A model generated the notes under the pieces. That model ran no database searches and was not told the origin of the DNA. It saw nothing but the letters and a program-made list of their open reading frames with translations. A program made the position numbers and the translations under genes. Shown here piece after piece: positions 3,435 to 24,010 of a stretch of 34,371 bases of DNA (position 1 is its first letter; the number at the start of each line of letters is the position of its first letter). The DNA comes from a virus. Location: positions 1 through 34,371 of IMG/VR virus record IMGVR_UViG_3300034139_000017; one strand, given 5' to 3'.

Positions 3435-6400
3435 TTAGCGGGGGCGGGTGTTGCCGGCGGCCGACTCTCGAGCATCGATCTGCTTCAGCCCGCGCGAAAG
3501 CTCCAGCCCGTCGATCCGGAGATCCTGCGCGCGAACGGCCGCCTCGACGGATCCGAGTGCGGCCTCGATGCGGACGGTCTGGCCCGCGGTCTCGCGCTGG
3601 AGTGCGTCGAGGGCGGCCGCGTGCGCCGGGTCCGCGGCCATGCGCACGACGACCGACGGCGCGCCTCGGCCGGCCTGCGACCGCTCGACCGCGCGCATGG
3701 CCGCGCCGAGGCGCTCGGTCCGCTCGTTCGTGATCACGCTGGAGCCGCCGGGCAGCTGCACCAGCTCGGGCCCGCGCTCGCCGACGAGGGCCATGCCTCC
3801 GGGCGCGCGGTCCGTGCCGAGGGCGTATTGCGGAATAGCGGGGAGCGGCTGGCCTGCGACGGCCGCGCCCTGCATCAGCCCGAGCGCGCCGGCCGCGGCC
3901 ATCTTGAACGGGTCCGGGAAGACTTCGACGAGGTTCAGCGCCGTCTCGATGGCGATCCGGAACAGGATCGCCCGCCGCTCCGCGATCGCGGCCGAGCGGT
4001 CGAGCTGCGCCATCTTCCGGCGCCGCGCGAGGTCGGCCGCTTCGTTCTCGGCCGCCTGCCGGTCCTTCAGCGCGTCAGACTCAGCGTCCATCGTCCGGCG
4101 CTCCTCTTCTAGCTCGGCCCGGCGCTCGGCACTCAGCCCCTCGGCGTCCATCTCCGACTCGATAACCCGGAGCCGCGCCGCCTGCCGCTCGGCAAGTGCC
4201 GCCGCCTCGCCCGCCTGAAAGCCCTCCCGGCGGCGGGTCGCGGCCTCGTCTTCGGCCTGCGCCTCGGCCTCCCGGCGCGCGTAGGCGTTGGAGGTCAGTT
4301 GTGAGGCAAGGCCGATGCCCGCAAGTACGGTGTCGGCTTGCTTTTGCAGGCGCTCCATCTGCCGCTCGTGGGCCTGCTCCTGCTCCTGTTCGTACTCGCG
4401 CTTGGCCCGCTTGGCGTGCTCGACTGCGGCGTCCTCCGCATCGGCGGTTTCCTTGATCCGGGCGAGGTCTCGGGTCAACTCGTCGGCGTCGATCTGCCGG
4501 GCCTCGGCGTCGGCGTCGCGCGCCTCTTGACGCTTCTCTAGTCCCGCCCGCCCGATCTCTTCGTCGCGTCGGTTTCGCGCAGCGTCGCGCGCCATGTCGA
4601 ACTCGTCTTGCGCGAGTTGGGCGCGCGCCGTCTCGTCGGCGTTGCGCTCCTTTGCGGCCCGCTCCCCGTCGATGGCCGCGAGCGCCGCGGTGAGCTTCGC
4701 CTGCGCCGCGTCTTCGGCCGCCTGCGCCTCGGCCTTGATCCCGTCGATCTCTACCTGCCGGGCCGTCTCGGCAAGGTTGGAGTCGTTGGAGAGCGCGGCG
4801 CGGCGTCTCGCAAACTCGTCGGTCATCAGCGCGATCCGCTCCGCGTTGTCGGCGTGCGTCTCGCGCAAGTCCTGCACCCGCATCGCCCGGCGGTGCCGTG
4901 CCGCCTCTTCGCGGTCGGCCGCCTCGGAGACGGTAATGTCCCGCTGCGTCTGGGCAAGGTCTAGGGCTGCCTGTCTTGTGGACTCGGCTTCCCGCTCTAG
5001 GCGGGCGGTGCGCTGTGCCGGCGTCTCGCCACCGGCCGCGGCTGTAGCCGAGGTGCCGGCGGGGGCACCGGCGGGCGGCGTTGGAGGGGTAGCAATCGCG
5101 GGAGAGAGCGCCTGTAGGCGCTGCTGTGCAGTCGTCGCCATCTCGCCCGCTGCCTCAAACTCCGACCGGGCGATCTGCAGAGCCGATTCGAGTTCTGCGA
5201 TGGTGCCCCGAATGGTATCCGCCTCGCGGCCGGCCGTCGATGCGGCAATCGGGTTGTCAGACGCAAGCCGCCCGTCTAGAGCGCCGAGAGCGCGGCGTCT
5301 CTCCAGAATTTGCCGGTACAGATCGTTCATCCGAGCAAGTGCGTCCGCCTTGTCGCCGTCGGCATCGGCGCGGGCTGCTGTCGCCTCAGCCGCGTTCATC
5401 GATAGGATCGCCGCCTTCGCCCGCTCGGCCGCCGTCCGTACCCTGTTCATCGCCGCCTCAGTGCGCCCGGCGGCGCGCTCGGCGGCATCCCCGAAGAGAA
5501 GCCACGCGCCTACGACCGCGGCGAGTGCCCCGAGCAAGAGCCCGAGCGGGTTCGCCATCACGGCCGCGGAGAACGCCCGCATGGCGAGCGTCGCCACTCC
5601 CGTCTCGCCGGCCATCGCGAGCGCCGCCATGCCGGCCGCCGTCGTCGCGATGCCGTGCGCCGCCGTCGCAGCCGCCGAGAGGGTTGCCGCCGACGAATAC
5701 GCGCCGTACGCCAGTGCGCCGAGGGCAATGAGCTTCGTGCCCGTCTCGACGGAATCCCAATTCTCCCGCAGCCACACGGCGAGGTCGCGCGTTGCCTGCA
5801 CCGTGTCCCGGAGCACGTCGTTGAAGCCTGACCCACTATCGAGTGCAAGGGCAGTCATCGCGGAGGCCAGCCGGTCCACGTCGCCGCGGAGGTTGTCGGT
5901 TTGCGTCGCCGCGGCATCGGTCGCGGCCGTGGTCCCCGTCACCGCATCCGTGAGGTCCCGGACCGAATCCGCGTTCTGAACCAAGTAGGTAGCCGCCGTG
6001 ACATTTTCCCGGCCAAATATTTCCGTCATTGCCGAGGCATTACCGAGGATTGGCCTCAGCTTGGCGAGCGTCGCGGTAAGCCCATCCTGCTCCAGATTCA
6101 CCCGGACGCCCGCGTCGGCAAGTTTCTCCTGCTCAGTCCTCAGAATCAGAATCACGTTGCGGAGCGCCGTCCCGGCCTCGGCGCCGCGCGTCGCGTTCTT
6201 GCCGAGCACTTCGAGCGCGCCAATGGTCTCTTCGAGCGAGACGTTCGCTGAAGCCGCGACGGCGCCGGCCTGTGCCATGGACGCACTCAGATCCTCAACC
6301 TCGGCTGAGCCCTTGACGGCGCCGGCCGCCATGGCCTCCATGACCCGCGTCGATTCAGACGCGGCGAGGCCGTACTGGTTGAGGGTGCCGGCAATCGCGT

Positions 6401-8707: not shown

Positions 8708-9055
8708 TCACGAGCGGGCCGAAGAAGCTGGGTCCGCTTTGCGGGCCAGCCGGAACGTGACGATCTGCTCCACGGGCTCGAACACTTCGCCGGTCAACTC
8801 CGCGATGATTTCCCGCTGGAGTGAGGCGTAGCGACCGCCCGAAATCCGCAGGGCAAAGTTGACGGCCCCGCGCGTCTTGCTCAGGCGCTCGGCAACCTCC
8901 TTCTGCGAGAGGCCGGAAGCCTCTACCGCCTCGACGGCTTTAGCAAGCAGGCCGTCGTAATCGAGGGTTTGACCGATGCGCACAGGTGGACGTTCGGGGG
9001 CGTGGCGTGACATCAAAAGTACAGGGCAGGTGGGAAGGGGCGCGTCTACCATCAT
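8708..9055 (-). CDS. XRE-family repressor-like protein 1
   Basis: Up to 115 residues, with a clear helix-turn-helix around residues 45-72 (GLSQKEVAERLSKTRGAVNFAL). It is probably the immunity repressor, transcribed divergently from the small gene at 9163. The longest frame starts at 9055 inside a near-perfect palindrome (9046-9060). A start at 9013 (MSRHAPERPP) would leave that palindrome free as an operator and is a good alternative. The C-terminal tail is short and has no peptidase domain, so classical RecA-driven self-cleavage is unlikely. The second repressor at 21019 has a different helix-turn-helix. Confidence 0.75.
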   Translation of the reverse strand: MMVDAPLPTCPVLLMSRHAPERPPVRIGQTLDYDGLLAKAVEAVEASGLSQKEVAERLSKTRGAVNFALRISGGRYASLQREIIAELTGEVFEPVEQIVTFRLARKADPASSARS

Positions 9056-9804: not shown

Positions 9805-10208
9805 ACGTCCAAGCCCTCTGCCACAGGTGCGGCGCGGACGTGCCGGAGAGCGCGGCGCGCTTCGTCGTCTGCGCGGCCTGTGCTGCGGACCCGAGCGCCG
9901 CCCGGCAGCGCCTCGCCAGTAGATGCCATCGCAACCGGCTCCGCGCCTACGCCCGCGGGGCGACTGGCTTTCACCGCCCGGCGGACGTGCGGCGCCTGCA
10001 CCGCGACCAGCGCGGGAAGTGTGCTTACTGCCAAACGCCGCTCGGCCCCGTGCTCGCCTCGCCCCCTGGCTATCACGTCGAGCACCGCACACCGCTGTGC
10101 CGAGGCGGGGCGAACGACCCGTCCAATCTTTGCCTGAGCTGTGCGACCTGTAATGCCCACAAGGGCAGCCAGACCGAGGGCGAGTTCCTAACCATTCAGA
10201 AGCGATGA
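9801..10208 (+). CDS. HNH endonuclease 1
   Basis: A 135-residue protein with an N-terminal Cys4 zinc ribbon (CHRCG at 8-12, CAAC about 20 residues later) and a typical HNH nuclease core. The core has CAYC, then HVEHRTPLCRGGANDPSNLCLSC, then CNAHKG. The His-Asn-His metal site appears complete. It overlaps both neighbours by ATGA, which places it in one rightward operon. HNH proteins in phages act in DNA packaging, in homing or in degrading competitor DNA. It is not next to terminase here, so a packaging role is less likely. Confidence 0.85.
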   Translation: MNVQALCHRCGADVPESAARFVVCAACAADPSAARQRLASRCHRNRLRAYARGATGFHRPADVRRLHRDQRGKCAYCQTPLGPVLASPPGYHVEHRTPLCRGGANDPSNLCLSCATCNAHKGSQTEGEFLTIQKR

Positions 10209-10825
10209 TCTTAGAAGCCGTGGGAGCGCGGGGCGGAAGCCTGCGCTGCCTATGCGACAACTGCGGGACAGAGTATGTAGGCGTCCGCTCCCAAGTAGCG
10301 CGCTGCCCGCGCCATTACTGCTCCCGCAAGTGCATGGGCGAGGGCAAGCGTAACCGAGTAGGGTTGATCTGTACATCTTGCGGAACTGCCTACTCTCGAC
10401 CGGTCTCCATCGTCGAGGTAGGCGCGAAGCGCGGCCACCGCCGGCACTTTTGCTCTGACGCCTGCCAGCGAGATCACCACCGAGGCCCAAACCATCCAGC
10501 CTACGTTGCCGACCGCTCAACGCTTAAAGCCCCCCTCCGCTCCCTACGGTACAGTAAGGAGGGGGCAGAGTGGCGGAAGTCAGTCTTCCGACGCGACAAC
10601 TACACCTGTCAGTTTTGCGGAAAGCGTTCCCGGAAGGGTCACCCAGTCACGATCCATGCTCACCACATCAAGCGGTTCGCAGATTTCCCAGCCCTACGGT
10701 TCGAGCCTGACAACGGGATCACGCTCTGCAGAGGGTGTCACGCCACGGTGACAGGCCGCGAAGCCGAGTTCGAGGCGCGGTTCGCCAAGGCCGTCGAGGA
10801 CCTGAAGCACGCAACGGCGGGATAA
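10205..10825 (+). CDS. HNH endonuclease 2 with zinc-finger N-terminus
   Basis: A 206-residue protein. Two Cys4-type treble-clef units lie at the N-terminus (CDNCG...CSRKC around residues 18-43, then CTSCG...CSDAC around 55-82). An HNH core follows around 135-185 (CQFCGK, then HAHHIKRF, then DNGITLCRGCHATVTG). It differs in sequence from HNH endonuclease 1, so the tandem pair is not a recent duplication. Translation is coupled to the upstream gene by an ATGA overlap. The zinc fingers probably bind DNA. Homing or interference nuclease are both possible. Confidence 0.85.
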   Translation: MILEAVGARGGSLRCLCDNCGTEYVGVRSQVARCPRHYCSRKCMGEGKRNRVGLICTSCGTAYSRPVSIVEVGAKRGHRRHFCSDACQRDHHRGPNHPAYVADRSTLKAPLRSLRYSKEGAEWRKSVFRRDNYTCQFCGKRSRKGHPVTIHAHHIKRFADFPALRFEPDNGITLCRGCHATVTGREAEFEARFAKAVEDLKHATAG

Positions 10826-10871
10826 GGTGGCCGAGCAGCACGCGTGGCGGGTATGCTACGTGCCCTCCCCC

Positions 10872-10934
10872 GCCCTCTGCGAGTCCACCGAGGCCAGCAT
10901 AAGCGAGGCATCCTACCTACCCCTTACTCCCTGA
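10872..10934 (+). pseudogene. 3' fragment of the lipoprotein gene
   Basis: An open stretch encodes ALCESTEASISEASYLPLTP and then a stop codon. This matches the C-terminus of the lipoproteins at 13749 (ALCESTEASISEATYMPLHR) and 7193. Sequence just upstream does not match either lipoprotein, so only the last 20 codons survive. An AT-rich cargo gene (DUF2806) begins 53 bp later, the same order as lipoprotein copy 2 and the DUF2971 gene. Confidence 0.75.
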
Positions 10935-10986
10935 TCAGGCCGAGAACCGCCCGCTGGGATATCGATCCGTCTTAAACCACAATGCT

Positions 10987-11844
10987 ATGGACTCTCTTAT
11001 AAACCTAGCTGGTTTAACAGAACCGGCTAAAATTTTGATAGAGAAGATATCTGAAGCAATCGGTGGTATCGCACGTCCATATCAGACCGTGCGCATGGCA
11101 AGAGCAGGGGCAGCAGCCTCTATTATCAAAGCAAAATCAGATATTGAAGTAAGCGATATCCAACTTAGAGCCACCAATAGACTACTATTAGAAGAGACGC
11201 GGAATCAAAACAATATAGAATCTATAGCAGCGGCAGCGCTACCACTGCTTGCAACCTCTGCGCTGCCTGCTGATATAGACACAGACTGGATTGCCAAATT
11301 TTTCGATGAATGTAGAATTATATCTAACTCCGAGGCTCAGTATATGTGGTCTAAGGTTCTGGCAGGAGAGGCAAACAAGCCAGGGAGTTTTTCCAAGCGC
11401 ACCCTGTCCGTCTTGAGTTCACTAGAAAAACAGGATGCTATTGATTTCAATAACCTATGCCGATTTGCATGGGACTTAGATCCCATGACTCCCATAATCT
11501 TTGACACGTCACACAATATATATAGAGAAAATGGAGTAAATTATAACTCAATCATAAATTTGGTGAGCTTGGGACTAGCATCCATGGAACCATCTGGCCT
11601 ATCAGCGCCCATTACTGCTTTAGATCATAACATATACTACTTTGGCGAAAGTTATTGCGTATCTTTCGAGCCTAGTAATGATGATTTACTCGGCAACCAC
11701 GAATCGTTCAAGATTGGAGGATGCCTCCTTAGCAAGATTGGACTAGAGCTATATAATATGTGCGAAATAGATCCTGTAGATGGTTTTGTTGACTACGTTG
11801 TTGAGCAGTGGTCAAGGAAGGGTAATTCTGTTAAGCGGTGCTAG
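10987..11844 (+). CDS. DUF2806-family protein
   Basis: A 285-residue AT-rich cargo protein that matches what I know of DUF2806 proteins. The N-terminus has LTEPAKILIEKISEAIGGI and PYQ, and a middle segment has WIAKFFDECRIISN..AQYMWSKVLAGEANKPGSFSKRTL. The N-terminal part is Ala-rich and helical. Family function is not established; members are scattered in genomes near mobile elements. It follows the lipoprotein fragment and precedes a small membrane protein in the same direction. Base composition differs sharply from the backbone, so recent transfer is likely. Confidence 0.8.
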   Translation: MDSLINLAGLTEPAKILIEKISEAIGGIARPYQTVRMARAGAAASIIKAKSDIEVSDIQLRATNRLLLEETRNQNNIESIAAAALPLLATSALPADIDTDWIAKFFDECRIISNSEAQYMWSKVLAGEANKPGSFSKRTLSVLSSLEKQDAIDFNNLCRFAWDLDPMTPIIFDTSHNIYRENGVNYNSIINLVSLGLASMEPSGLSAPITALDHNIYYFGESYCVSFEPSNDDLLGNHESFKIGGCLLSKIGLELYNMCEIDPVDGFVDYVVEQWSRKGNSVKRC

Positions 11845-14110: not shown

Positions 14111-14965
14111 ATGAGCATGGATGTATACGATGGATATCTGAGTTTTCTGGCGCCCCCCAATACTCCCAAAATTCTATACAAATATCATAGCTTTGATCCT
14201 AGTAATTACCACATTAGATTGATAACTGACCGCGAAATATTTTTCACGTCCGCTCGGAATTTCAATGATCCTTTCGACACTTCTATAGTCTATTCAATAG
14301 AAAATGTTAGTGCTAAAACAATTCTAAAGGGTGCTGAATCTTTCTTCAAAGATGAATATCCACACCTAAATCGCAGGCAGCGCAAGGAGTTAGCAAAGGA
14401 GAAAACCAAGGCTATAATGAGAGACCCCAACCACAAGAGGGTTTTCATTGATACCGTTACCGAAATTCATTACAATAAATTTGGCCTTTACTGCATGTCA
14501 GAGATAAGGGACAGCTTGTTAATGTGGGCACATTATTCAGATTCGCATAGAGGTTTCTGCGTTGGGCTTCATACTGAAAAACTGCTTGAAACAGCAGCTG
14601 CCGCTGCGTTGGAGTCAAAATTTATATCACTTAAAAAGATCAGATATGAGGAAAAAATGCCGATAATTCATTTCTTTGAATCTGACGACAGCAAGGGCCC
14701 TAGCGATGACATAGACACTTTTATTAGCACTAAATCATCTGACTGGTCCTACGAGAAAGAATATAGACTTGTGAATCACAACCACCCCGACACTATTCTC
14801 CAGTTACCACCTGATACAATATCAGAAGTTATAGTAGGCTGTAGGGCTTCAGAAAAAGACAGGTCTATGATAACTGATCATGTTGCCCAGTTAGAAAACG
14901 TTATTCTGTATCAAGCAAAAAGACATGATTATAAGTTCGAGCTAGACTTCGTTCGAGTCTTGTGA
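14111..14965 (+). CDS. DUF2971-family protein
   Basis: A 284-residue AT-rich cargo protein with the usual DUF2971 landmarks. These are LYKYHSF near residue 25, REIFFTSARNFNDPFD around 45-60, and LLMWAHYSDSHRGFCVGL around 140-160, with W-SYEKEYRLV further on. The biochemical role of the family is not settled; members are often found in mobile and defence-rich regions. The N-terminal ATG at 14111 follows the lipoprotein by 38 bp. Foreign origin is likely from its base composition. Confidence 0.82.
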   Translation: MSMDVYDGYLSFLAPPNTPKILYKYHSFDPSNYHIRLITDREIFFTSARNFNDPFDTSIVYSIENVSAKTILKGAESFFKDEYPHLNRRQRKELAKEKTKAIMRDPNHKRVFIDTVTEIHYNKFGLYCMSEIRDSLLMWAHYSDSHRGFCVGLHTEKLLETAAAAALESKFISLKKIRYEEKMPIIHFFESDDSKGPSDDIDTFISTKSSDWSYEKEYRLVNHNHPDTILQLPPDTISEVIVGCRASEKDRSMITDHVAQLENVILYQAKRHDYKFELDFVRVL

Positions 14966-16459: not shown

Positions 16460-17071
16460 TCAGTCGTCTTGCAGGCTTCGCCAGACTAAACATGACGCGA
16501 CCGTCGGCAGCGTCGCACGCATGAGGGTGGCCACGTCGGACGCGGACGTCGAGGCGCGGAGCACAGCCGCCTCCCACAGCCACATCGCGCCGCGGACGCT
16601 CGACCGCCACGCGGCGAGGTCCCTGCGGTACCGCTGCTCGGCCTCGGCGCGGGCGAGCGCCTTGCCTTCGAGTCCGTCGAGGTCGGGAGTGGGCGGCGTC
16701 GGCGCCTCCGTCGTGCTGAGCCGGCCGAGGATGTCCGCGGCCTCCGCCTCGTCTAGCGCAGCGGTGCCGAAGAACTCACGGATGGCCCGCTGCACCTCCG
16801 ACACGTTCACCCCCTGCCCGTCGCGGATGCGGTCACGGCACGTTGGAAAGAGCACGCGGCACATCTCGACGATGTACTCCGGGCGGCTTAGCTCTGGCTC
16901 GCACGCCTCGGCCCCAAAGCCCATCTGCACGGCTGCCGCCTCACGACTCGCGCGCTCCTTGTGCCCGGCCCGCACCTCGACGGCGTGGGCCGCAAACATC
17001 GTGCTGACAGACGGACTCGCCAGCGGGTAGTCGTGCCTGTCGGTTGTGAGGGGGCGGTAACCAGCGGGCAC
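16460..17071 (-). CDS. Tail assembly chaperone, long (GT-like) copy
   Basis: A 203-residue protein that starts at GTG. Its first half is closely similar to the 105-residue protein at 23693-24010 (GYRPLTTD..DYPLA.PSV, SREAA..MGF..ACEPELSRP.YIVEMCRVLFPTCRDRI). It continues in the same frame beyond residue 110 (REFFGTAALDEAEAADILGRL) into a helical domain with PTPPTPDLDGLEGKALARAEAE. The slippery run of the other copy is absent (TTC TTC GGC), so the long form is made without frameshifting. GT proteins normally bridge tape measure and tube during tail assembly. It stands alone, with a CGTGCA-type site 60 bp upstream. Confidence 0.72.
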   Translation of the reverse strand: MPAGYRPLTTDRHDYPLASPSVSTMFAAHAVEVRAGHKERASREAAAVQMGFGAEACEPELSRPEYIVEMCRVLFPTCRDRIRDGQGVNVSEVQRAIREFFGTAALDEAEAADILGRLSTTEAPTPPTPDLDGLEGKALARAEAEQRYRRDLAAWRSSVRGAMWLWEAAVLRASTSASDVATLMRATLPTVASCLVWRSLQDD

Positions 17072-17120
17072 AGACGGGTCGGCGTCAGATGTCCCGCTAG
17101 CCTACCCGCCGCTCCCCACG

Positions 17121-17155
17121 CGTGCCCCTGCGTGCACGTCTCCAATGCGTGCACG
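17121..17155 (-). promoter_or_regulatory. CGTGCACG cluster ahead of long chaperone gene
   Basis: CGTGCACG occurs at 17131-17138 and 17148-17155 (17 bp apart), with a weaker CGTGCCCC at 17121-17128. It lies 50-84 bp before the GTG start of the long chaperone. Similar pairs precede tape measure and scaffold genes with 21-bp spacing. Confidence 0.35.
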
Positions 17156-17230
17156 CCTCCGTGTCGAAGCAGGGCTCCGATTGCAGTGCGCCTAACCCGT
17201 CCCGCCTGTTCCCCGCCAAGGGAAAATCCA

Positions 17231-17842
17231 CTAAGCAGATGTAGATCCAAATCTGTGCGCGGCGTCTGCGATTCCCTTGAGTTGTTCAGACAAATACTCT
17301 ATTTCTGTGGGGTATACAATTTCAAAAGGACCTGACGATACTATTTCTATATTGGGCTCCAGCAATCCGCCTTCTGCCTTTAGCCCAGCATATCCTGTTG
17401 ATACAAGTATATATGATTCTTTTATGTGTCTGGGTACAGCCGACGAGTCCGAAATCATGTTAAAAACTACCTCTGCCAGATATCCCAGCTTTTCCACGTC
17501 CATGCTAGAAAGTCTGGCGGGAGAATCTCGATAGTAGGTAGTCTTTACCTGAACAAGTGATATATGGGTCAGATCTTGTTCGTCATTGTATCTTGCGCCA
17601 AACACATCTGCTGGCGTACGGCTTCCCGGCGTGAGCGCAGTCATCATTCCGAGAGCTTTGAGCCGATCGGCTACATGCTTCTCGCCTAGGGTGCCAAGCC
17701 CAACCCTGTTCATCTTGCGACGCCCGATGATTTCTGCAAGCTTAGGGATTGCTTCAGCATCTTCAATGCCGGATATCGCAAGCTCGTCGGGCCACGCTTT
17801 AGCGACCTCGGAGACGAAAGAAGGCAGCCACCCTACAGCCAT
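17231..17842 (-). CDS. PD-(D/E)XK nuclease-like cargo protein
   Basis: A 203-residue protein with a restriction-endonuclease-like pattern. GTLGEKHVADRLKALG supplies a Glu (residue 54) in the first helix, TPADVFG supplies Asp79, and LVQVKTT supplies the Q-x-K of the central strand (Lys100). These match the alpha-beta core of the PD-(D/E)XK or Mrr-like superfamily. The gene is AT-rich relative to the phage backbone and has no methyltransferase partner nearby, so it is not a classical restriction enzyme. It could cut invading DNA or serve DNA repair. It is transcribed divergently from Mor copy 2, 85 bp away. Confidence 0.6.
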   Translation of the reverse strand: MAVGWLPSFVSEVAKAWPDELAISGIEDAEAIPKLAEIIGRRKMNRVGLGTLGEKHVADRLKALGMMTALTPGSRTPADVFGARYNDEQDLTHISLVQVKTTYYRDSPARLSSMDVEKLGYLAEVVFNMISDSSAVPRHIKESYILVSTGYAGLKAEGGLLEPNIEIVSSGPFEIVYPTEIEYLSEQLKGIADAAHRFGSTSA

Positions 17843-17927
17843 AGCGGGAAGTAATGGATTGAGCCCTCTCGATACGCCCTGTCGCCCTGCTGTGTTCTCC
17901 CACTCACTGTCACCTCTGGCCCCTGCA

Positions 17928-18230
17928 ATGCCTGCTCAGATTGACTGGTCCACCGTCGCCCTCTCCGACCTCCCGCCCGAGCTTGCCGAACTGTGCGAGA
18001 CGGTCGCAGGCGCCTCGTCCCCGGTTGAGGCGGCCGAGCGGATCGTCTCGGCGTTCGGCGGGGGCAACCTGTACGTGCCCGCGCTGCGCGACCTCCGGCG
18101 GCGGCACCTCGCCCGTCAGGCCGCGGCACTGTTCGACCCGGCGGCCAACGGCGGGAAGGGAAACGCTAGCGCTGTCGCGCGGCGCCTCGGCGTGTCTCGG
18201 CGTCTGGTGGCGGGGCTACTCAACCGGTAG
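17928..18230 (+). CDS. Mor-type transcription activator, copy 2
   Basis: A 100-residue protein nearly the same as copy 1: QIDWSTVALSDLPPELAELC, AAERIVSAFGGGNLYVPALRDLRRRHLARQ and the helix-turn-helix AVARRLGVSRRLVAGLL. The ATG at 17928 aligns with the other copy. It lies between two AT-rich leftward cargo genes and is followed by a strong hairpin. Two active Mor genes in one prophage could come from fusion of two related phages or serve two late promoter sets. Confidence 0.82.
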   Translation: MPAQIDWSTVALSDLPPELAELCETVAGASSPVEAAERIVSAFGGGNLYVPALRDLRRRHLARQAAALFDPAANGGKGNASAVARRLGVSRRLVAGLLNR

Positions 18231-18247
18231 AGAGCCCGCTGGCGTGT

Positions 18248-18270
18248 ACGCGACCCGCGGCGGGTCGCGT
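18248..18270 (+). terminator. Terminator after Mor copy 2
   Basis: Perfect 9-bp stem ACGCGACCC (18248-18256) and GGGTCGCGT (18262-18270) with loop GCGGC, 17 bases after the stop codon. Confidence 0.65.
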
Positions 18271-18303
18271 GCTGCAAGCTTAGGATACCTCTGCACTTAT
18301 CTA

Positions 18304-19086
18304 CTATTCGCTGATTGCTCCCTCCTCGTTTGACATCCGCTCAGCCTCCTTTCGGATTTTTATCAGAGCAGATTTAATGTTGATTAACAATTCCTCTATC
18401 TCCAAGTCTGCTCCATCCATTAGCGCTATAGCCTCCTCAAAACTACCATTGTCTTCTAGTATATCATCAACCTCGTGATTATCAGAAATATCTACTTCAT
18501 TCAACAAAACCAAGACATCATCTAGGTTTTCCTTTACTACATTCTTTATTGAGTTTATGTATTTGGTAGACTTGCCTCTAGTTGAAGACAGTGACAATTT
18601 GTATTTTTGATACAAAAAACCAGCAGCCAGACATCTAAACGAAGCCGCTGAAAAAATATATCCATCATCTTTTACTATATCAGATATTACGACATTTAAA
18701 TTGCCGCTGGCTAGATTCATCCTCTCTCTATCTTCCAAAATCTGAGATTCCATAGAGGCGGTCTTGGCCTCATGCTTGCTATAAATATCTTTCAGCTGAT
18801 TGATCTTCCTATTTATTTCTAATTTTATACTACCATAGCTTATTAATCCTATTACGGTTATGATAATTCCAACTATAAGACTGAACCTATTAGCCTGTTC
18901 GTCTAAAGCTGTATTATAGAAATCCTCGGCAATTCGATGGGATGCAAGGGCAGAATTTAGAGAATCTAGAGTTTGTGATGTGCGCGCTGACTCAACTTCG
19001 AGACGCGCGATCCTGAGACTGTCCCCCTGAGCGATGGAAGCCGGGGCCGTGAGGGCTAGGGCGGCGACAAAGGCGATCAGTCGCAT
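18304..19086 (-). CDS. Secreted or membrane-anchored coiled cargo protein
   Basis: A 260-residue protein. The ATG at 19086 is preferred because it begins a signal peptide (MRLIAFVAALALTAPASIAQ). A coiled segment (GDSLRIARLEVESARTSQTLDSLN) follows, then a transmembrane helix around residues 72-92 (FSLIVGIIITVIGLISYGS), a second coil and an acidic helical C-terminus. The body is very AT-rich, whereas the signal peptide is GC-rich, as if an acquired gene had been fitted to a host-type leader. The periplasmic coil, membrane helix and cytosolic domain suggest a sensor or exclusion protein; this is inference. Confidence 0.6.
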   Translation of the reverse strand: MRLIAFVAALALTAPASIAQGDSLRIARLEVESARTSQTLDSLNSALASHRIAEDFYNTALDEQANRFSLIVGIIITVIGLISYGSIKLEINRKINQLKDIYSKHEAKTASMESQILEDRERMNLASGNLNVVISDIVKDDGYIFSAASFRCLAAGFLYQKYKLSLSSTRGKSTKYINSIKNVVKENLDDVLVLLNEVDISDNHEVDDILEDNGSFEEAIALMDGADLEIEELLINIKSALIKIRKEAERMSNEEGAISE

Positions 19087-19611
19087 GGGATGATTAGTTA
19101 GTTGAAGTGCTAGGCCTCGCCGCACAGGGAGTGTAGCCGCCGAGCCAAGAAGAATCCTGCTACCCTTTCCGCTCGACCCGGTATCGCTCTGGGACTTCAA
19201 CAAGCCGGAAGTCAGTCAGGTGCTCAATGATGCGATGCGGGCTTGCACCTTAGGGAGATGGCGATGTCGTAACGCTTAAGCTGGGAGTCGGCCATAGGGA
19301 GCGATGCTAGGGCTCGGGGAAACGGCTGTCGCGCTCCAGAAGGTTCGAGCCACGGCATAGGATCCGCAACCTGCCGAGGTCATAGACGCGCCCCAGTGCA
19401 CCCACTGCGGGTTCGCCGTGTCCTGTCGTCTGCGGAGCGCAACGGGGAAGTGAGATGCGGCACCTGCGCCCGTTGGCTTGGAGTGTCGCGACGGATGCTA
19501 GAAGACAGTTAGCTGGCTGCTCGCCTCCAGCGTTTCGCGGCGCGGCGTTGCCCGGCGGCTTGGGGTGAACCGGGTGAGCGTGCAGGAGGGCACGTCCGCA
19601 TTAAGAGCCCG
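19087..19611. other. Gene-poor stretch with decayed phage genes
   Basis: No intact gene is visible. From 19361 one frame gives DPQPAEVIDAPQCTHCGFAVSC; after a frame change it continues as ERNGEVRCGTCARWLGVSRRMLEDS and stops at 19512. The two CxxC pairs look like a small Com-type zinc ribbon split by a frameshift, and LGVSRRM recalls the Mor helix-turn-helix end. Farther on (about 19530-19570) GVARRLGVNRVSV appears in another frame. These are best read as decayed regulator genes. Confidence 0.35.
19180..19279 (+). pseudogene. Possible XRE repressor remnant 1
   Basis: An open stretch ends with DFNKPEVSQVLNDAMRACTL and then GRWRCRNA and a stop. It recalls the turn and recognition helix of phage XRE proteins (PEVSQVLN..RRxTL). 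No start or first half is visible. A similar stretch occurs at 20075. Weak call. Confidence 0.22.
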
Positions 19612-19869
19612 CTAGCCTTTGGCTTCCCTCCGTGCGTTGATAAGGAGTTGGGCCCTTTGGGCAAAGTCCGAGGCCTCCTCATGGGTCATGAACAAGCCGA
19701 GCGCGACATAGTCGAGCGGCTGATTCCGGGAGAACTGCTTTGCGTTGAGGTCGTGCATCTCAGCGACCGTCTGAATGTGGAGTTGGTTTTGGGTATAGCT
19801 CCACTCAACAACGTAGAACTCGCCAAGGGCGTCGTCGAGCGACGGGAGGCGTGGGTGATCTTCAGCCAT
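19612..19869 (-). CDS. Small hypothetical phage protein
   Basis: An 85-residue acidic protein (MAEDHPRLPSLDD, then FYVVEWSYTQNQLHIQTVAEM and ASDFAQRAQLLINARREAKG). No domain was recognised. It lies downstream of the two TIR genes in the same direction but 317 bp away, so it is probably transcribed separately or by read-through. Base composition is nearer to the phage backbone than to the AT-rich cargo. Confidence 0.5.
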   Translation of the reverse strand: MAEDHPRLPSLDDALGEFYVVEWSYTQNQLHIQTVAEMHDLNAKQFSRNQPLDYVALGLFMTHEEASDFAQRAQLLINARREAKG

Positions 19870-20186
19870 CGGTCATAGTCAGCTAGGGACCGGACAAGCT
19901 AGGCTTACCCCCCCCCGCCGTGCCATACAGACGTGGCCGCGTCGATCAAGCCAGCGTACTCAGAGTTGCTCTGGCTTTAGGTCCCCCAGGTCGGACAATC
20001 CGGCAGTAGGTGTTTCGGGAGGAGGTGACCCGGCTGCCCGACTCTGGTGTCTGACATTGTTCGGCAACCGGGGTGGCGCGTCGAGAAGTCAACAAGGTGC
20101 TGAGCGCGAAGCCCCCGAGGGCGACCCTGCACATAAATCGTTGGATTTAGATTCATGTGAATTGGAATAGGTGTGTTTAAATTAGT
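19870..20186. other. Gene-free stretch after the TIR operon
   Basis: I see no intact gene. GC content drops abruptly at about 20130, marking the border between backbone-like sequence and the AT-rich TIR genes. A C-rich run lies near 19906-19917. A possible repressor remnant is listed separately. Confidence 0.4.
20075..20150 (+). pseudogene. Possible XRE repressor remnant 2
   Basis: One frame reads GAREVNKVLSAKPPRATLH and then INRWI and a stop, resembling the end of an XRE helix-turn-helix (EVNKVLSxK..RATL..RW). The DNA GAAGTCAACAAGGTGCT resembles GAAGTCAGTCAGGTGCT at 19208, so the two remnants may share an origin. Weak call. Confidence 0.22.
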
Positions 20187-20597
20187 CTATATTGGACGAT
20201 AACCATATCCCCATACTCTCATTAGGTCAACATTTCCAATATCAATACCTTTTGTGTAATCAACAATTTGCAAGCTTTCTAATACCCATGATAATCTCTC
20301 TATTTCACAATCTTGGTATAATATAGGAACTATATTATTTTCATACTGAGGCTTTCTTAACGCATAAACTAGCTCTCTTCTAACCCATGTGGATTCAATG
20401 GAATTCGGCGACATCACCACAGCAAAGCAATCGCAACGCCTTAGTGCATCTCCTATCTCGTTGTGCCACTGCTGCGAACCGATTATATTCGTATCGCTAT
20501 ACCAAACAGGTATTCCATGTCTCCTGATCATGGATGCCAGATCGCGCACAAAGTCGCGATCTAAACTACTGTGAGATAGGAAGATCTCATTCGGCAT
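20187..20597 (-). CDS. TIR-domain protein 1 (putatively active)
   Basis: A 136-residue protein that is essentially one TIR domain. IFLSHSSLDRDFVRDLA lies at the N-terminus, VWYSDTNIIGSQQWHNEI around residues 31-48, and SPNSIESTWVRRELVYAL around 63-80. Glu75, four residues after Trp71, is at the place of the catalytic Glu of TIR NAD-cleaving enzymes. The gene is AT-rich and is third in a leftward operon after an XRE regulator and a second TIR gene (14-bp gap). TIR effectors in bacterial immunity deplete NAD or make signal nucleotides. Role in superinfection exclusion or host defence is likely but inferred. Confidence 0.8.
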   Translation of the reverse strand: MPNEIFLSHSSLDRDFVRDLASMIRRHGIPVWYSDTNIIGSQQWHNEIGDALRRCDCFAVVMSPNSIESTWVRRELVYALRKPQYENNIVPILYQDCEIERLSWVLESLQIVDYTKGIDIGNVDLMRVWGYGYRPI

Positions 20598-20611
20598 GAA
20601 TATTCGATATT

Positions 20612-21022
20612 CTAATCTCTAGATTTATTTATACGGTCTGCTATTTTTGAAAATGCGTCCTCTTTGCTTAGATGTGATTCTATGATAATTATGTTCATTC
20701 TAGTCAATATCCACGATGTACTACTGACGAATTTAACATCACTAAAAGACTTTATTACAGGAATTATTTTATTTTTGAATCTAGAATTTCCTAATGCGAA
20801 AGATATATCGTTCGCCATCTTGGGATCGTCAACCGAAGACTCTCCAATGAACACTACCATAAAATCCGACCTCAATAACTCTCTTTGATGAGCGTAATAC
20901 CAGCTCTCTCCACCCTCAGTCTTAAAATCGCCCCAACCTTGTAGTCCATTCCTTTCGAACGTGTTGTTTACCTCTCTGGCAAGCTGTTCGTCAGATGCTG
21001 GATAGCTGATGAATACTCTCAT
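20612..21022 (-). CDS. TIR-domain protein 2 (probably inactive)
   Basis: A 136-residue TIR-like protein, the same length as its neighbour. It has VFISYPASDEQLAREVNNTFE, then WGDFKTEGGESWYYAHQREL, VVFIGESS and KNKIIPVIK. In the region that normally carries W-x3-E it reads VDDPKMANDISFAL, so the catalytic Glu is missing. It may be a sensor or a regulatory partner of TIR 1. Its start overlaps the stop codon of the XRE gene by 4 bases, so translation is coupled. It is AT-rich like TIR 1. Confidence 0.72.
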   Translation of the reverse strand: MRVFISYPASDEQLAREVNNTFERNGLQGWGDFKTEGGESWYYAHQRELLRSDFMVVFIGESSVDDPKMANDISFALGNSRFKNKIIPVIKSFSDVKFVSSTSWILTRMNIIIIESHLSKEDAFSKIADRINKSRD

Positions 21023-21261
21023 GGTACTCGAACTCTATATATGGGCCCCTCAACGTCTAGACTAGCACACTGCTTGATGATACGTATAAGAAGATCCGTG
21101 AAGGGACGTCTTGATTTACCGCTGAGTGCTTCGGACACTGTAGGCTGGCGTACTCCTAAGGCATCAGCAAGCGCTTGCTGCGACATGCCGCATTCGGCAA
21201 ATGCCTGTCGAGCCAAAGTCCGAAGCTCGGATTCGCCTAGGTCCTGATTGGGAAGGTCCAT
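21019..21261 (-). CDS. XRE-family repressor-like protein 2
   Basis: An 80-residue protein that is little more than a helix-turn-helix (CGMSQQALADALGVRQPTVSEALSGKSRRPFTDLLIRII). The ATG at 21261 is preferred; a TTG at 21285 would add eight residues. It heads the TIR operon and is divergent from the small early gene at 21388, with a dyad-rich operator between them. It may both hold the phage promoter silent and set the level of the TIR pair. Confidence 0.82.
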   Translation of the reverse strand: MDLPNQDLGESELRTLARQAFAECGMSQQALADALGVRQPTVSEALSGKSRRPFTDLLIRIIKQCASLDVEGPIYRVRVP

Positions 21262-21315
21262 TTTTGGAGAGAGGGCTTCTCGCAAGATAGGCTCGGGGCC
21301 GAAAAAAGGTCCTTG

Positions 21316-21356
21316 ATCGTCAATCGACTATTGACTTGTAATAGTCAATTGACGAT
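21316..21356. promoter_or_regulatory. Repressor 2 operator: nested GTCAAT dyads
   Basis: GTCAAT-CGACT-ATTGAC (21319-21335), GTCAATTGAC (21344-21353) and GACTATT/AATAGTC (21326-21332 and 21340-21346) lie inside a larger dyad ATCGTCAAT/ATTGACGAT (21316-21324 and 21348-21356). TTGACT at 21331 could be a rightward -35 element. The sites have no similarity to those of repressor 1, so the two immunities should be independent. Confidence 0.65.
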
Positions 21357-21387
21357 ATTGAGCAGAGAGCACAGACCGCCCCGCCTT

Positions 21388-21648
21388 ATGGACCGCCCGA
21401 TCTACCAGGTCGCCAAGACCAACCGCCGAAGCCTCCGCCGCGACGTGCTCGAAGTCGTCGCATCCGGCCTCACAATGGACAGCGCAAGCGCGCTCGCGCA
21501 GACCCTCCGCGAGCAGCACCGCGACGACGAGAGCCGCTTCGGCTACAGCGTCCAGACGATGCCGCTCGCCGCGCAGGTTACGCACCTCGCCGCGGCCGAG
21601 ACGATGGCCGCCCTCCGCGACGAGACGCCGCTCCGACGCGCCGCCTGA
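21388..21648 (+). CDS. Conserved small early protein, copy 2
   Basis: An 86-residue paralog of the protein at 9163-9414. Shared blocks include YQVA.T.R.S.RR.VLEVVASGL, DSAS.LA..LR.Q, ES.FG.SVQ.MP and ETMAAL..ETPLRRAA. It is the first rightward gene after repressor 2 and its operator, as copy 1 is after repressor 1. The ATG at 21388 is the one that aligns with copy 1. Function unknown; the position implies an early regulatory role. Confidence 0.65.
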   Translation: MDRPIYQVAKTNRRSLRRDVLEVVASGLTMDSASALAQTLREQHRDDESRFGYSVQTMPLAAQVTHLAAAETMAALRDETPLRRAA

Positions 21649-21656
21649 ACACAACC

Positions 21657-21688
21657 GCGCCGCGCCGGGGTCCAGCCCGACGCGGCGC
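21657..21688 (+). terminator. Hairpin after small early gene 2
   Basis: Inverted repeat GCGCCGCG (21657-21664) and CGCGGCGC (21681-21688), 9 bases after the stop codon. It mirrors the hairpin after the paralog at 9427-9455. Confidence 0.5.
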
Positions 21689-21716
21689 ACTCACGCTCAC
21701 CTCACACACCGCTAAG

Positions 21717-22238
21717 ATGCCCAAGACCAAACGCGATAGCGCACCCAACGTCCCCGACGCCGTTCAGGTTGCGCTAGGCGCACGCCACCCCGACGTACCC
21801 GCCGCCGTCCAGCAGTGGGCCGACGAACGCCCGGACAGCGGCGAGACTCGCACGCTCGGCTACGCCGTCACCCTCCAGCCGCAGTGGGGGCAGCCCGACG
21901 CCGACGGCTTCGTCCCGGCGACGTGCTACCTCACCGGGCGCGCGTTCGCCGTCCTCAAGACGATGCCGCTCGTCTGCCTCTCCAACGGCACCGCGTGGCC
22001 CAACGGCGAGCACGACGAGCGTTCGGAAACGCACCGGCTCAGCCCGCACCTCGTCGCGCAGGGTGAGGACGCCGTACGGGAGGCGATGCGCCGGAAGGCC
22101 GCACGCCTGCTTACCGAGGCGTCCGAAGCGATCCGGGAGGCGACGAGCCTGCACCACGCGGCCGGGCTGGGCTTGCCGGCCGCGTGGCCGTCGTACTGGG
22201 TGGAGGAGGCGCGGGAGAAGCTGGCCGGGGTCCGATGA
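21717..22238 (+). CDS. Hypothetical early phage protein
   Basis: A 173-residue protein starting MPKTKRDSAP with no recognised domain. It has a mixed pattern (TLGYAVTLQPQWGQPDADGF, TCYLTGRAFAVLKTMPLVCL) and an Ala/Glu-rich helical C-terminal half ending ASLHHAAGL-type sequence and YWVEEAREKLAG. GC-rich, like the phage backbone. Its stop codon overlaps the next start as ATGA, so the two are coupled. Confidence 0.55.
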   Translation: MPKTKRDSAPNVPDAVQVALGARHPDVPAAVQQWADERPDSGETRTLGYAVTLQPQWGQPDADGFVPATCYLTGRAFAVLKTMPLVCLSNGTAWPNGEHDERSETHRLSPHLVAQGEDAVREAMRRKAARLLTEASEAIREATSLHHAAGLGLPAAWPSYWVEEAREKLAGVR

Positions 22239-22423
22239 CGCGCCCGATGCCCGACTCGCTCCGTCCGGCCGGTGCGCTCACGCCGGACGAAGCGGCGTGC
22301 CTCGCCGCGGTTCGCGCGCTCCACCCGCGCGTGCAGGTTTACCGGATCGGCGCAGGCTGGCCGGAGGGCTCGCCCGCGCCGGGCACCCTGTTCTTCGTCG
22401 TGCCCACCAAGCGCGCCGACTGA
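22235..22423 (+). CDS. Small hypothetical early phage protein
   Basis: A 62-residue protein (MTRPMPDSLRPAG, then DEAACLAAVRALHPRVQVYRI and PGTLFFVVPTKRAD). It overlaps the upstream gene by 4 bases, and the TnpB gene begins 4 bases after its stop codon. The tight spacing on both sides argues for a real operon gene. No family was recognised. Confidence 0.5.
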   Translation: MTRPMPDSLRPAGALTPDEAACLAAVRALHPRVQVYRIGAGWPEGSPAPGTLFFVVPTKRAD

Positions 22424-22427
22424 CCCC

Positions 22428-23696
22428 ATGCAGAGCGCCACCCTCGACCTGTTCGCTGACGCCCCGGCCGCTGACGCTGCGGAGACGCCCGTCGTGGCGA
22501 CGGTGCACCGGGCGTACCGCTTCCGTCTGTACCCGAACGAGGCGCAGCGGGTGGCGCTCGCGCGGACGTTCGGGTGCGCGCGGTACGTCTACAACTGGGG
22601 GCTTGCGCGGAAGCGGGATGCCTACCGGGAGAGCGGCAAGAGTGTCGGCTATGCCGCACTTTCGCGAGAGTTGACGGCGCTCCGCAAGACGAAAGGGACC
22701 GAATGGCTTGGTGACGTGCTGCGGTCCGGGATGGAACAGAGCCTCCGGGACCTGGACTTCGCGTATAGCAGTTTCTTTGCGGGACACGCAGCGTTCCCCC
22801 GCTTCAAAAGGCGGCGCGGGGCGCAAAGCGTCCGGTACGTGGCGACGGCGTTCCGCGTAGATGGCACGGCGCTGCGGCTCGGAAAGACGCCCGGCGCGAT
22901 CCCGGTCCGGTGGAGCCGTGCGCTCCCCTCCGCGCCGTCGTCATGTACGGTGAGCGTAGACGCGGCCGGGCGCTACCACGCCTCGTTTCTGTGTACCGTC
23001 GCCGTCACGCCGCTCCCGTCAAACGGGCGGACGGTCGGCGTCGATCTGGGACTCACGCACTTCGCGACGCTTTCGACGGGCGAGAAGGTGGAAAACCCGC
23101 GCTACCTCGAACAGAAGCTCGCCCGATTGGCGCGCGAGCAGCGCAGGCTTGCCCGGAAAGTGAAAGGTTCGGCCAACTACGGCAAGCAGAAACGCCGCGT
23201 GGCGAAGGTGCACGCGCGTATCGCAGACCAGCGGAAAGATTTCCTGCACAAGCTCACGACCCGACTCATCCGCGAAAACCAAGCGGTAGCCGTCGAGACG
23301 CTGAACGTGGCCGGGATGGTCAAGAACCGGAAGCTCGCCCGACACATCGGACAGGCGGGGTGGGCCGAGTTCGTGCGGATGCTCGACTACAAGGCCGAGC
23401 AGTACGGCCGGGCGGTCCACCGGGTGGGCCGGTTCGAGACGACGACGGGTCTATGCTCGGCGTGTGGACACCGGCCGGGCAAACTGCCCCTGAGCGTCCG
23501 GGTGTGGACATGCGAGATGTGCAGCGCCGAGCACGACCGCGACGTGAACGCAGCACAGAACATTGCCGCTTGTGTGAGCGGCCACGCGGCGAGAAACGCC
23601 GTGTCAGCCTGTGGAGACGGTGGAAGCCCTCAGCGTCTAGGCGCCGAGGCGACCGTCAGTGAAGCAGGAACCGGCCTCGGAGCCGGATTTCGCTAG
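22428..23696 (+). CDS. tnpB: TnpB-family RNA-guided nuclease (IS200/IS605-type)
   Basis: A 422-residue TnpB. It has the N-terminal HRAYRFRLYPNEAQ signature (from residue 27), RuvC-I Asp206 (VGVDLGLTHFA), RuvC-II Glu290 (AVAVETLNVAGM) and RuvC-III Asp372 (HDRDVNAAQNIA). A Cys4 zinc finger (Cys343, Cys346, Cys362, Cys365) is present. All catalytic residues are intact. No tnpA is present and no left end is visible, because a phage gene ends 4 bases upstream. The first 20 or so residues (MQSATLDLFADAPAADA) do not look like TnpB and may be the start of a disrupted phage gene. GTG22495 is an alternative start. Its stop codon overlaps the chaperone stop. Confidence 0.9.
   Translation: MQSATLDLFADAPAADAAETPVVATVHRAYRFRLYPNEAQRVALARTFGCARYVYNWGLARKRDAYRESGKSVGYAALSRELTALRKTKGTEWLGDVLRSGMEQSLRDLDFAYSSFFAGHAAFPRFKRRRGAQSVRYVATAFRVDGTALRLGKTPGAIPVRWSRALPSAPSSCTVSVDAAGRYHASFLCTVAVTPLPSNGRTVGVDLGLTHFATLSTGEKVENPRYLEQKLARLAREQRRLARKVKGSANYGKQKRRVAKVHARIADQRKDFLHKLTTRLIRENQAVAVETLNVAGMVKNRKLARHIGQAGWAEFVRMLDYKAEQYGRAVHRVGRFETTTGLCSACGHRPGKLPLSVRVWTCEMCSAEHDRDVNAAQNIAACVSGHAARNAVSACGDGGSPQRLGAEATVSEAGTGLGAGFR
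23583..23694 (+). ncRNA. Putative omega-RNA / right end of TnpB element
   Basis: In IS200/IS605-type elements the guide RNA scaffold overlaps the 3' end of tnpB and the right end. Here the last codons contain two hairpins: CACGCGGCG-AGAAA-CGCCGTG (23583-23603) and CCGGC-CTCGGA-GCCGG (23671-23686). The element border is placed at about 23690-23696, because CTAGCGCAGC beyond it is shared with the intact chaperone copy. Guide sequence would then start at CTAGCGCAGC. Inferred from family knowledge and folding by eye. Confidence 0.45.
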
Positions 23697-24010
23697 CGCA
23701 GCACGGCGAAAAAATCCGCCGATGCGCGGAGGACCTCGGCCACGTTGACGGTCTTGCCCTCGCCGATCCGGTCGCGGCACGTCGGGAAGAGGACGCGGCA
23801 CATCTCAACGATGTAGTCCGGGCGGCTCAGCTCCGGCTCGCAGGCGTCGGGCTCGAAGCCCATCAGCTTCGCCGCGGCCTCGCGCGAGACGCGGTCCTTG
23901 AACCCGGCGCGGGCCTCGACGGCGTACGCGGCGATCATGGCCTCGACCGACGGATCGGCGAGCGGATAGTCCTTGTCGTCGGTCGTGAGCGGTCGGTAGC
24001 CGGTGGCCAT
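23693..24010 (-). CDS. Tail assembly chaperone, short (G-like) form
   Basis: A 105-residue protein similar to the first half of the long copy at 16460-17071 (ATGYRPLTTDDKDYPLADPSVEAM, SREAAAKLMGFEPDACEPELSRPDYIVEMC). It ends ADFFAVLR shortly after a slippery heptamer. Its place after the tube genes fits the G gene of the G/GT pair. In the -1 frame the sequence would continue RRAAL, matching GTAAL of the long copy, but then enters the TnpB element and stops about 17 codons later. The short form is therefore complete, while the GT extension is destroyed. Coordinates follow the zero-frame product. Confidence 0.75.
   Translation of the reverse strand: MATGYRPLTTDDKDYPLADPSVEAMIAAYAVEARAGFKDRVSREAAAKLMGFEPDACEPELSRPDYIVEMCRVLFPTCRDRIGEGKTVNVAEVLRASADFFAVLR
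23708..23714 (-). other. Programmed -1 frameshift site (slippery heptamer)
   Basis: On the minus strand the codons GAT TTT TTC give T_TTT_TTC, a canonical X_XXY_YYZ slippery site in the correct phase. The zero-frame stop codon follows four codons later. G/GT genes of many long-tailed phages use exactly this arrangement. Confidence 0.65.

What the first reader, a model, noticed from the sequence alone, without database searches (positions are those of the whole stretch)
23583..23720. TnpB element border falls on the chaperone frameshift region; predicted guide would match the tail gene
CTAGCGCAGC beyond the tnpB stop is shared with the intact chaperone copy, so the border is at about 23690-23696 and the TnpB stop codon is made partly of target DNA. 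By the known mechanism, RNA from the right end would carry the flanking chaperone sequence as guide. It would match sibling phages with an unbroken gene. The second copy differs after about 10 bases, so it may escape cutting.
Basis: partly seen in the sequence, partly recalled or inferred. Interest (0 to 1): 0.66.

Follow-up and report, generated by a model that had tools for sequence, protein, structure and literature searches.

The report
TnpB gene abutting phage chaperone gene
A phage carries an RNA-guided DNA-cutting gene (tnpB) whose guide RNA, if made, would be copied from the phage's own tail-assembly gene next door; this is a good example of a known kind of selfish element, and nothing here shows that it actually cuts rival phages.

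Summary
The border call holds and can be sharpened. A TnpB guide-RNA model built without this window finds a full-length scaffold at 23606-23693 (50 bits, E 1.8e-10). Its last base is where homology with the second chaperone copy (16463-17071) begins. The pseudoknot next to the guide pairs fully in one register only, ending at 23693. So the border is 23693|23694 and the predicted guide is TAGCGCAGCACGGCGA(AAAA), antisense chaperone DNA. TnpB's TAG stop (23694-23696) is then wholly target DNA. The target is the -1 slippery region (T TTT TTC, 23708-23714). The G-like protein survives; its frameshift extension is lost.

The same method on a Klebsiella phage TnpB put the border exactly where siblings have the empty site, and the siblings match its guide 20/20. 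So the mechanism is a known kind.

Weaker parts: no left end, no TnpA, and no remainder of the broken gene left of tnpB, so this is not a simple intact insertion. No sibling phage or empty site was found in IMG/VR, INPHARED or 245 related genomes, so the sibling target is untested. Copy 1 matches 9 guide bases, then diverges, so it should escape.

The parts
22428..23696 (+). tnpB ORF, 422 aa (canonical homology starts at 22503 GTG); RuvC acidic residues and zinc finger present
   Evidence: Pfam OrfB_IS605 3e-36, Cas12f1-like_TNB 7e-22; ISDra2 TnpB alignment 1e-80 with D, E, D aligned
23606..23693 (+). guide-RNA (omega-RNA/reRNA) scaffold inside the tnpB 3' end
   Evidence: covariance model R1 built from relatives, 50.2 bits, E 1.8e-10, full length
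23614..23617 (+). GAGA, 5' strand of the pseudoknot next to the guide
   Evidence: pairs 4/4 with 23688-23691 only in the register ending at 23693; register as in ISDra2 structure (PMC10097598)
23671..23686 (+). terminal hairpin CCGGC-CTCGGA-GCCGG directly after conserved GAAGCAGGAA (stem 4 equivalent)
   Evidence: such a hairpin by chance in GC-rich window DNA 4%
23687..23693 (+). 7-nt tail ATTTCGC, right end of the element; border 23693|23694
   Evidence: same 7-nt tail length as relatives; method placed the true border in a control phage
23694..23713 (+). predicted guide TAGCGCAGCACGGCGAAAAA (16 nt to 23709); first three bases are also the TnpB stop codon
   Evidence: follows from the border; guide is about 16 nt of flanking DNA in ISDra2 (PMC8612924)
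23693..24010 (-). chaperone copy 2, G-like product 105 aa; stop TAG overlaps the TnpB stop
   Evidence: position upstream of the tape measure gene; no HMM match
23708..23714 (-). -1 slippery heptamer T TTT TTC; frame after slip now runs 23 codons (RRAALAKSGSEAGSCFTDGRLGA), mostly element DNA, and stops
16463..17071 (-). chaperone copy 1, G and extension fused in one frame, 203 aa

Best explanation
This is the right end of an IS200/IS605-type, TnpB-only element whose left end has been lost. The border is 23693|23694, inside the extension region of a tail-assembly chaperone gene just past its -1 slippery site. tnpB and its overlapping guide-RNA scaffold look intact. Transcripts running through tnpB would be trimmed to a scaffold (23606-23693) plus about 16 nt of antisense chaperone sequence. 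TnpB with that guide would be expected to cut an uninterrupted copy of the gene that carries the right adjacent motif, and repair from the carrier would copy the element in (homing). Shown: the protein, the scaffold, the border, the slippery site and the failure of copy 1 to match. Inferred: transcription, processing, cutting, the adjacent motif, that siblings exist, and that copy 1 (fused frame) now supplies the long product.
For: R1 full-length hit ending at 23693. Unique pseudoknot register. Hairpin and 7-nt tail as in relatives. Homology to copy 1 starts at the same base. Catalytic residues aligned to ISDra2 TnpB. Control: in Klebsiella phage ZCKp20p the model's end is the true border and two siblings keep the empty site with a 20/20 guide match.
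Against: No left end by model R2, although it finds left ends in 7 control loci; it also misses several relatives, so this is not decisive. No Y1 transposase. No remainder of the chaperone extension left of tnpB. The end letters TTCGC differ from TCAA/TCAC of relatives. No sibling or empty site found. Upstream ORFs abut tnpB (stop 22421-22423, ATG 22428), as in an operon.
Confidence: 0.68

Rival explanations
1. The tnpB is a resident phage gene (moron) in the + strand operon 21389-23696, no longer a mobile element; the guide RNA is vestigial or serves another target, and its nearness to the chaperone is an accident of recombination.
For: No left end, no TnpA; short ORFs abut tnpB; 25-aa in-frame extension before the canonical start; no gene remainder on the left.
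Against: Right-end structure and border coincide with chaperone homology to the base, which predicts a guide against the chaperone whatever happened to the left side; catalytic residues are intact.
Confidence: 0.2
2. The scaffold ends at GAAGCAGGAA (23670), as in IS607-type relatives without a terminal hairpin, so the guide would be CCGGCCTCGGAGCCGG and the border about 23 bases further left.
For: Two IS607-type copies in one genome diverge right after GAAGCAGGAA (L074/L075); the hairpin alone is a 4% chance event.
Against: These relatives are only 38-39% identical against about 50% for hairpin-bearing ones; the pseudoknot strand TTTC sits past the hairpin in the right register; in the control phage the hairpin end is the true border.
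Confidence: 0.08
3. Assembly chimera: two related phage contigs joined at the chaperone gene, creating both the double copy and the odd junction.
For: Single IMG/VR record, no relatives, two about 70% identical chaperone copies flanking cargo.
Against: The aligned copies share only short exact runs, too little for a typical assembler join; the border has the structure expected of a right end.
Confidence: 0.04

Closest known systems
ISDra2 TnpB and its reRNA/omega-RNA (Deinococcus radiodurans; PMC8612924, PMC10097598)
   Same: RuvC acidic residues, zinc finger, scaffold overlapping the 3' end of tnpB, pseudoknot next to the guide, short tail after the last stem, guide from flanking DNA
   Different: no TnpA, no left end, end letters TTCGC, shorter last hairpin than relatives, TAM unknown, TnpB stop codon lies inside the guide
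TnpB-only element of Klebsiella phage vB_Kpn_ZCKp20p (OP373729)
   Same: 45% identical TnpB, antisense among virion genes, guide equals a structural-gene flank
   Different: there both borders are clean and two siblings with the empty site are known; 20/20 guide match
TldR, phage-encoded RNA-guided transcription factor related to TnpB (PMC13418256)
   Same: phage-encoded TnpB relative with guide RNA
   Different: catalytic residues are intact here (TldR is nuclease-dead, from memory); no sign of regulator use

Membership tests
TnpB (OMEGA) RNA-guided nuclease | TnpB domains with RuvC D/E/D and zinc finger | tested here: met
   (E278 and D361 numbering of ISDra2 from memory; D191 from PMC8612924)
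TnpB (OMEGA) RNA-guided nuclease | guide-RNA scaffold at the 3' end of tnpB with pseudoknot and guide in the flank | tested here: met
TnpB (OMEGA) RNA-guided nuclease | RNA-guided cleavage next to a TAM | not testable with these tools
   needs biochemistry; no empty site known
IS200/IS605 (IS1341-type) mobile element | right end with subterminal hairpin and cleavage site | tested here: inconclusive
   hairpin present, but TTCGC in place of TCAA/TCAC
IS200/IS605 (IS1341-type) mobile element | left end hairpin preceded by the target motif | tested here: not met
   R2 finds nothing at 17100-23700; positive controls found; the model misses some relatives too
IS200/IS605 (IS1341-type) mobile element | single-site insertion: both halves of the target gene flank the element | tested here: not met
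TldR | degenerate RuvC catalytic residues | tested here: not met
Tail-assembly chaperone G/GT | gene before the tape measure gene with -1 slippery heptamer and extension | tested here: met
   by position and slippery site only, no family HMM match and a low-confidence fold

The most novel reading that the evidence does not exclude
The element settled exactly behind a programmed-frameshift site of an essential tail gene, leaving the short product intact and abolishing the long one, while a second, frame-fused copy supplies the long product and is immune to the guide. The guide then polices phages that still use the frameshift version, an RNA-guided exclusion system aimed at an essential virion gene.
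Probability: 0.15. Interest if true: 0.65.

Novelty: new member of a known kind. Interest (0 to 1): 0.4.

Why it matters
It gives a base-exact prediction (guide, target gene, immune second copy) for an RNA-guided nuclease carried by a phage of a poorly sampled group. It also shows a way to place TnpB borders without an empty site, checked on a phage where the empty site is known. If the exclusion reading were true, it would be RNA-guided competition between phages over an essential tail gene.

Tried and rejected
Searches for siblings of the chaperone, major capsid, portal and tape measure proteins in IMG/VR gave none, and capsid, portal and copy-1 chaperone gave none in INPHARED. The copy-2 chaperone gave none in 245 genomes of the class of the nearest TnpB carrier. 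The terminase gave only 26-32% relatives; four of those genomes were fetched. In one (L081) the order capsid, tail, two small genes, tape measure has no cargo directly before the tape measure gene; in another (L083) lysis-like genes lie in that stretch. The guide 18-mer in IMG/VR: three hits in unrelated genes, taken as chance. A weak match of ORF 8711-9055 to the chaperone extension was judged to be a composition match with an HTH-like protein, although it beat 500 shuffles. AlphaFold of copy 1: pLDDT 58, all helical, not used. The TnpB tree did not resolve the window's nearest clade. Rfam: nothing relevant. The upstream ORF 21717-22235 has no relative in 245 genomes or INPHARED. An off-by-one in my first pseudoknot count was corrected.

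Full report
What the window is. The whole window is one IMG/VR record (34371 bp) of a high-GC phage with a Mu-type portal and a tape measure gene and a phage major head protein (PHROG). The host is probably in or near the Rhodothermia, because many of the best TnpB relatives lie there; this is inference. On the minus strand, head and tail genes run from about 28.3 to 23.7 kb and the tape measure gene is 7094-3438. Between them lie 16 kb of cargo and a second copy of the chaperone-like gene (16463-17071).

The observation. CTAGCGCAGC is present at both places, at the homologous position of two genes that are about 70% identical. Copy 2 reads ...GAT TTT TTC GCC GTG CTG CGC TAG. The heptamer T TTT TTC is in phase for a -1 shift and is the only X XXY YYZ site in the 4.6 kb tail block. 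Copy 1 reads through the same region in one frame. A -1 shift in copy 2 now adds 23 codons, mostly element DNA, and stops. So the short product is intact and the long product is lost from this copy.

The border. Relatives of this TnpB in Rhodothermia genomes, often several per genome, have a conserved scaffold ending ...GAAGCAGGAA + hairpin + about 7 nt (TCAA or TCAC). A covariance model from eight of them, window excluded, has 17 of 28 pairs with compensatory changes. It finds the window at 23606-23693 with 50.2 bits; the next best place has 14.8 bits. The search fits the model end to end, so the end position rests on structure, not on the last letters. Two further checks bear on it. A hairpin this good right after GAAGCAGGAA would occur at 4% of GC-rich window positions by chance. 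The pseudoknot known from the ISDra2 structure (-5U..-3C with -103A..-105G; PMC10097598) pairs 4/4 only if the scaffold ends at 23693. That is the base where homology with copy 1 starts.

A control. The same model finds the TnpB element of Klebsiella phage ZCKp20p, ending at position 3683 of L089. Sibling phages VLCpiS13c and KP591P1 have the uninterrupted site, the junction is exactly at 3683|3684, and the next 20 bases match the siblings 20/20. It is therefore a known kind.

What does not fit a simple insertion. No left end was found with a left-end model that does find seven control loci (it misses other relatives). There is no Y1 transposase. Nothing like the chaperone extension lies to the left of tnpB. 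Short ORFs of a + strand operon run into tnpB with 4 bp between stop and ATG. The simplest history is insertion into the chaperone, then loss or replacement of the left part with cargo and a second chaperone; the order is inference.

Targets. Copy 1 matches the first 9 guide bases, then mismatches at 10-12, 15, 16 and 19 (14 of 20), and has CCTCGTC beside it, unlike the TTAT-like motif seen at left ends of relatives. It should escape. The own locus has the right end, not a target motif, beside the guide match. No sibling phage was found, so the central claim about siblings is open.

Verdict. The sequence reading is right and now base-exact. The functional reading is plausible by established knowledge of TnpB (PMC8612924) but rests on no data from this phage family. 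It is a new member of a known kind.

Noticed in passing
window 20190-21285: Two adjacent TIR-domain genes (ThsB/TIR-like) behind an HTH_3 regulator, divergent from the + operon that ends in tnpB; operator-like inverted repeats near 21318-21355. Looks like a regulated defence module.
   Followed up: partly
window 14111-14962: DUF2971 protein matching the candidate defence family PDC-S31 (4e-61), in the cargo between copy 1 and the tape measure gene.
   Followed up: no
window 10205-11841: HNH endonuclease and a DUF2806 protein in the same cargo stretch.
   Followed up: no
L089 2000-4096 (Klebsiella phage ZCKp20p): TnpB-only element inserted at the start codon of a virion gene; siblings VLCpiS13c and KP591P1 keep the empty site TCTCAT|TTTAGTGTCATC with a perfect guide match: a good experimental model.
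   Followed up: yes
window 22428-22502: 25-aa in-frame extension before the canonical TnpB start, directly after a 62-aa ORF; may be the start of another phage gene fused to tnpB.
   Followed up: no
L087, L088, L090, L092, L093 (3' of tnpB): Phage and plasmid relatives carry two hairpins in tandem after GAAGCAGGAA, a variable one and then the transposon-end hairpin; the Rhodothermia set used for the model has only one.
   Followed up: partly
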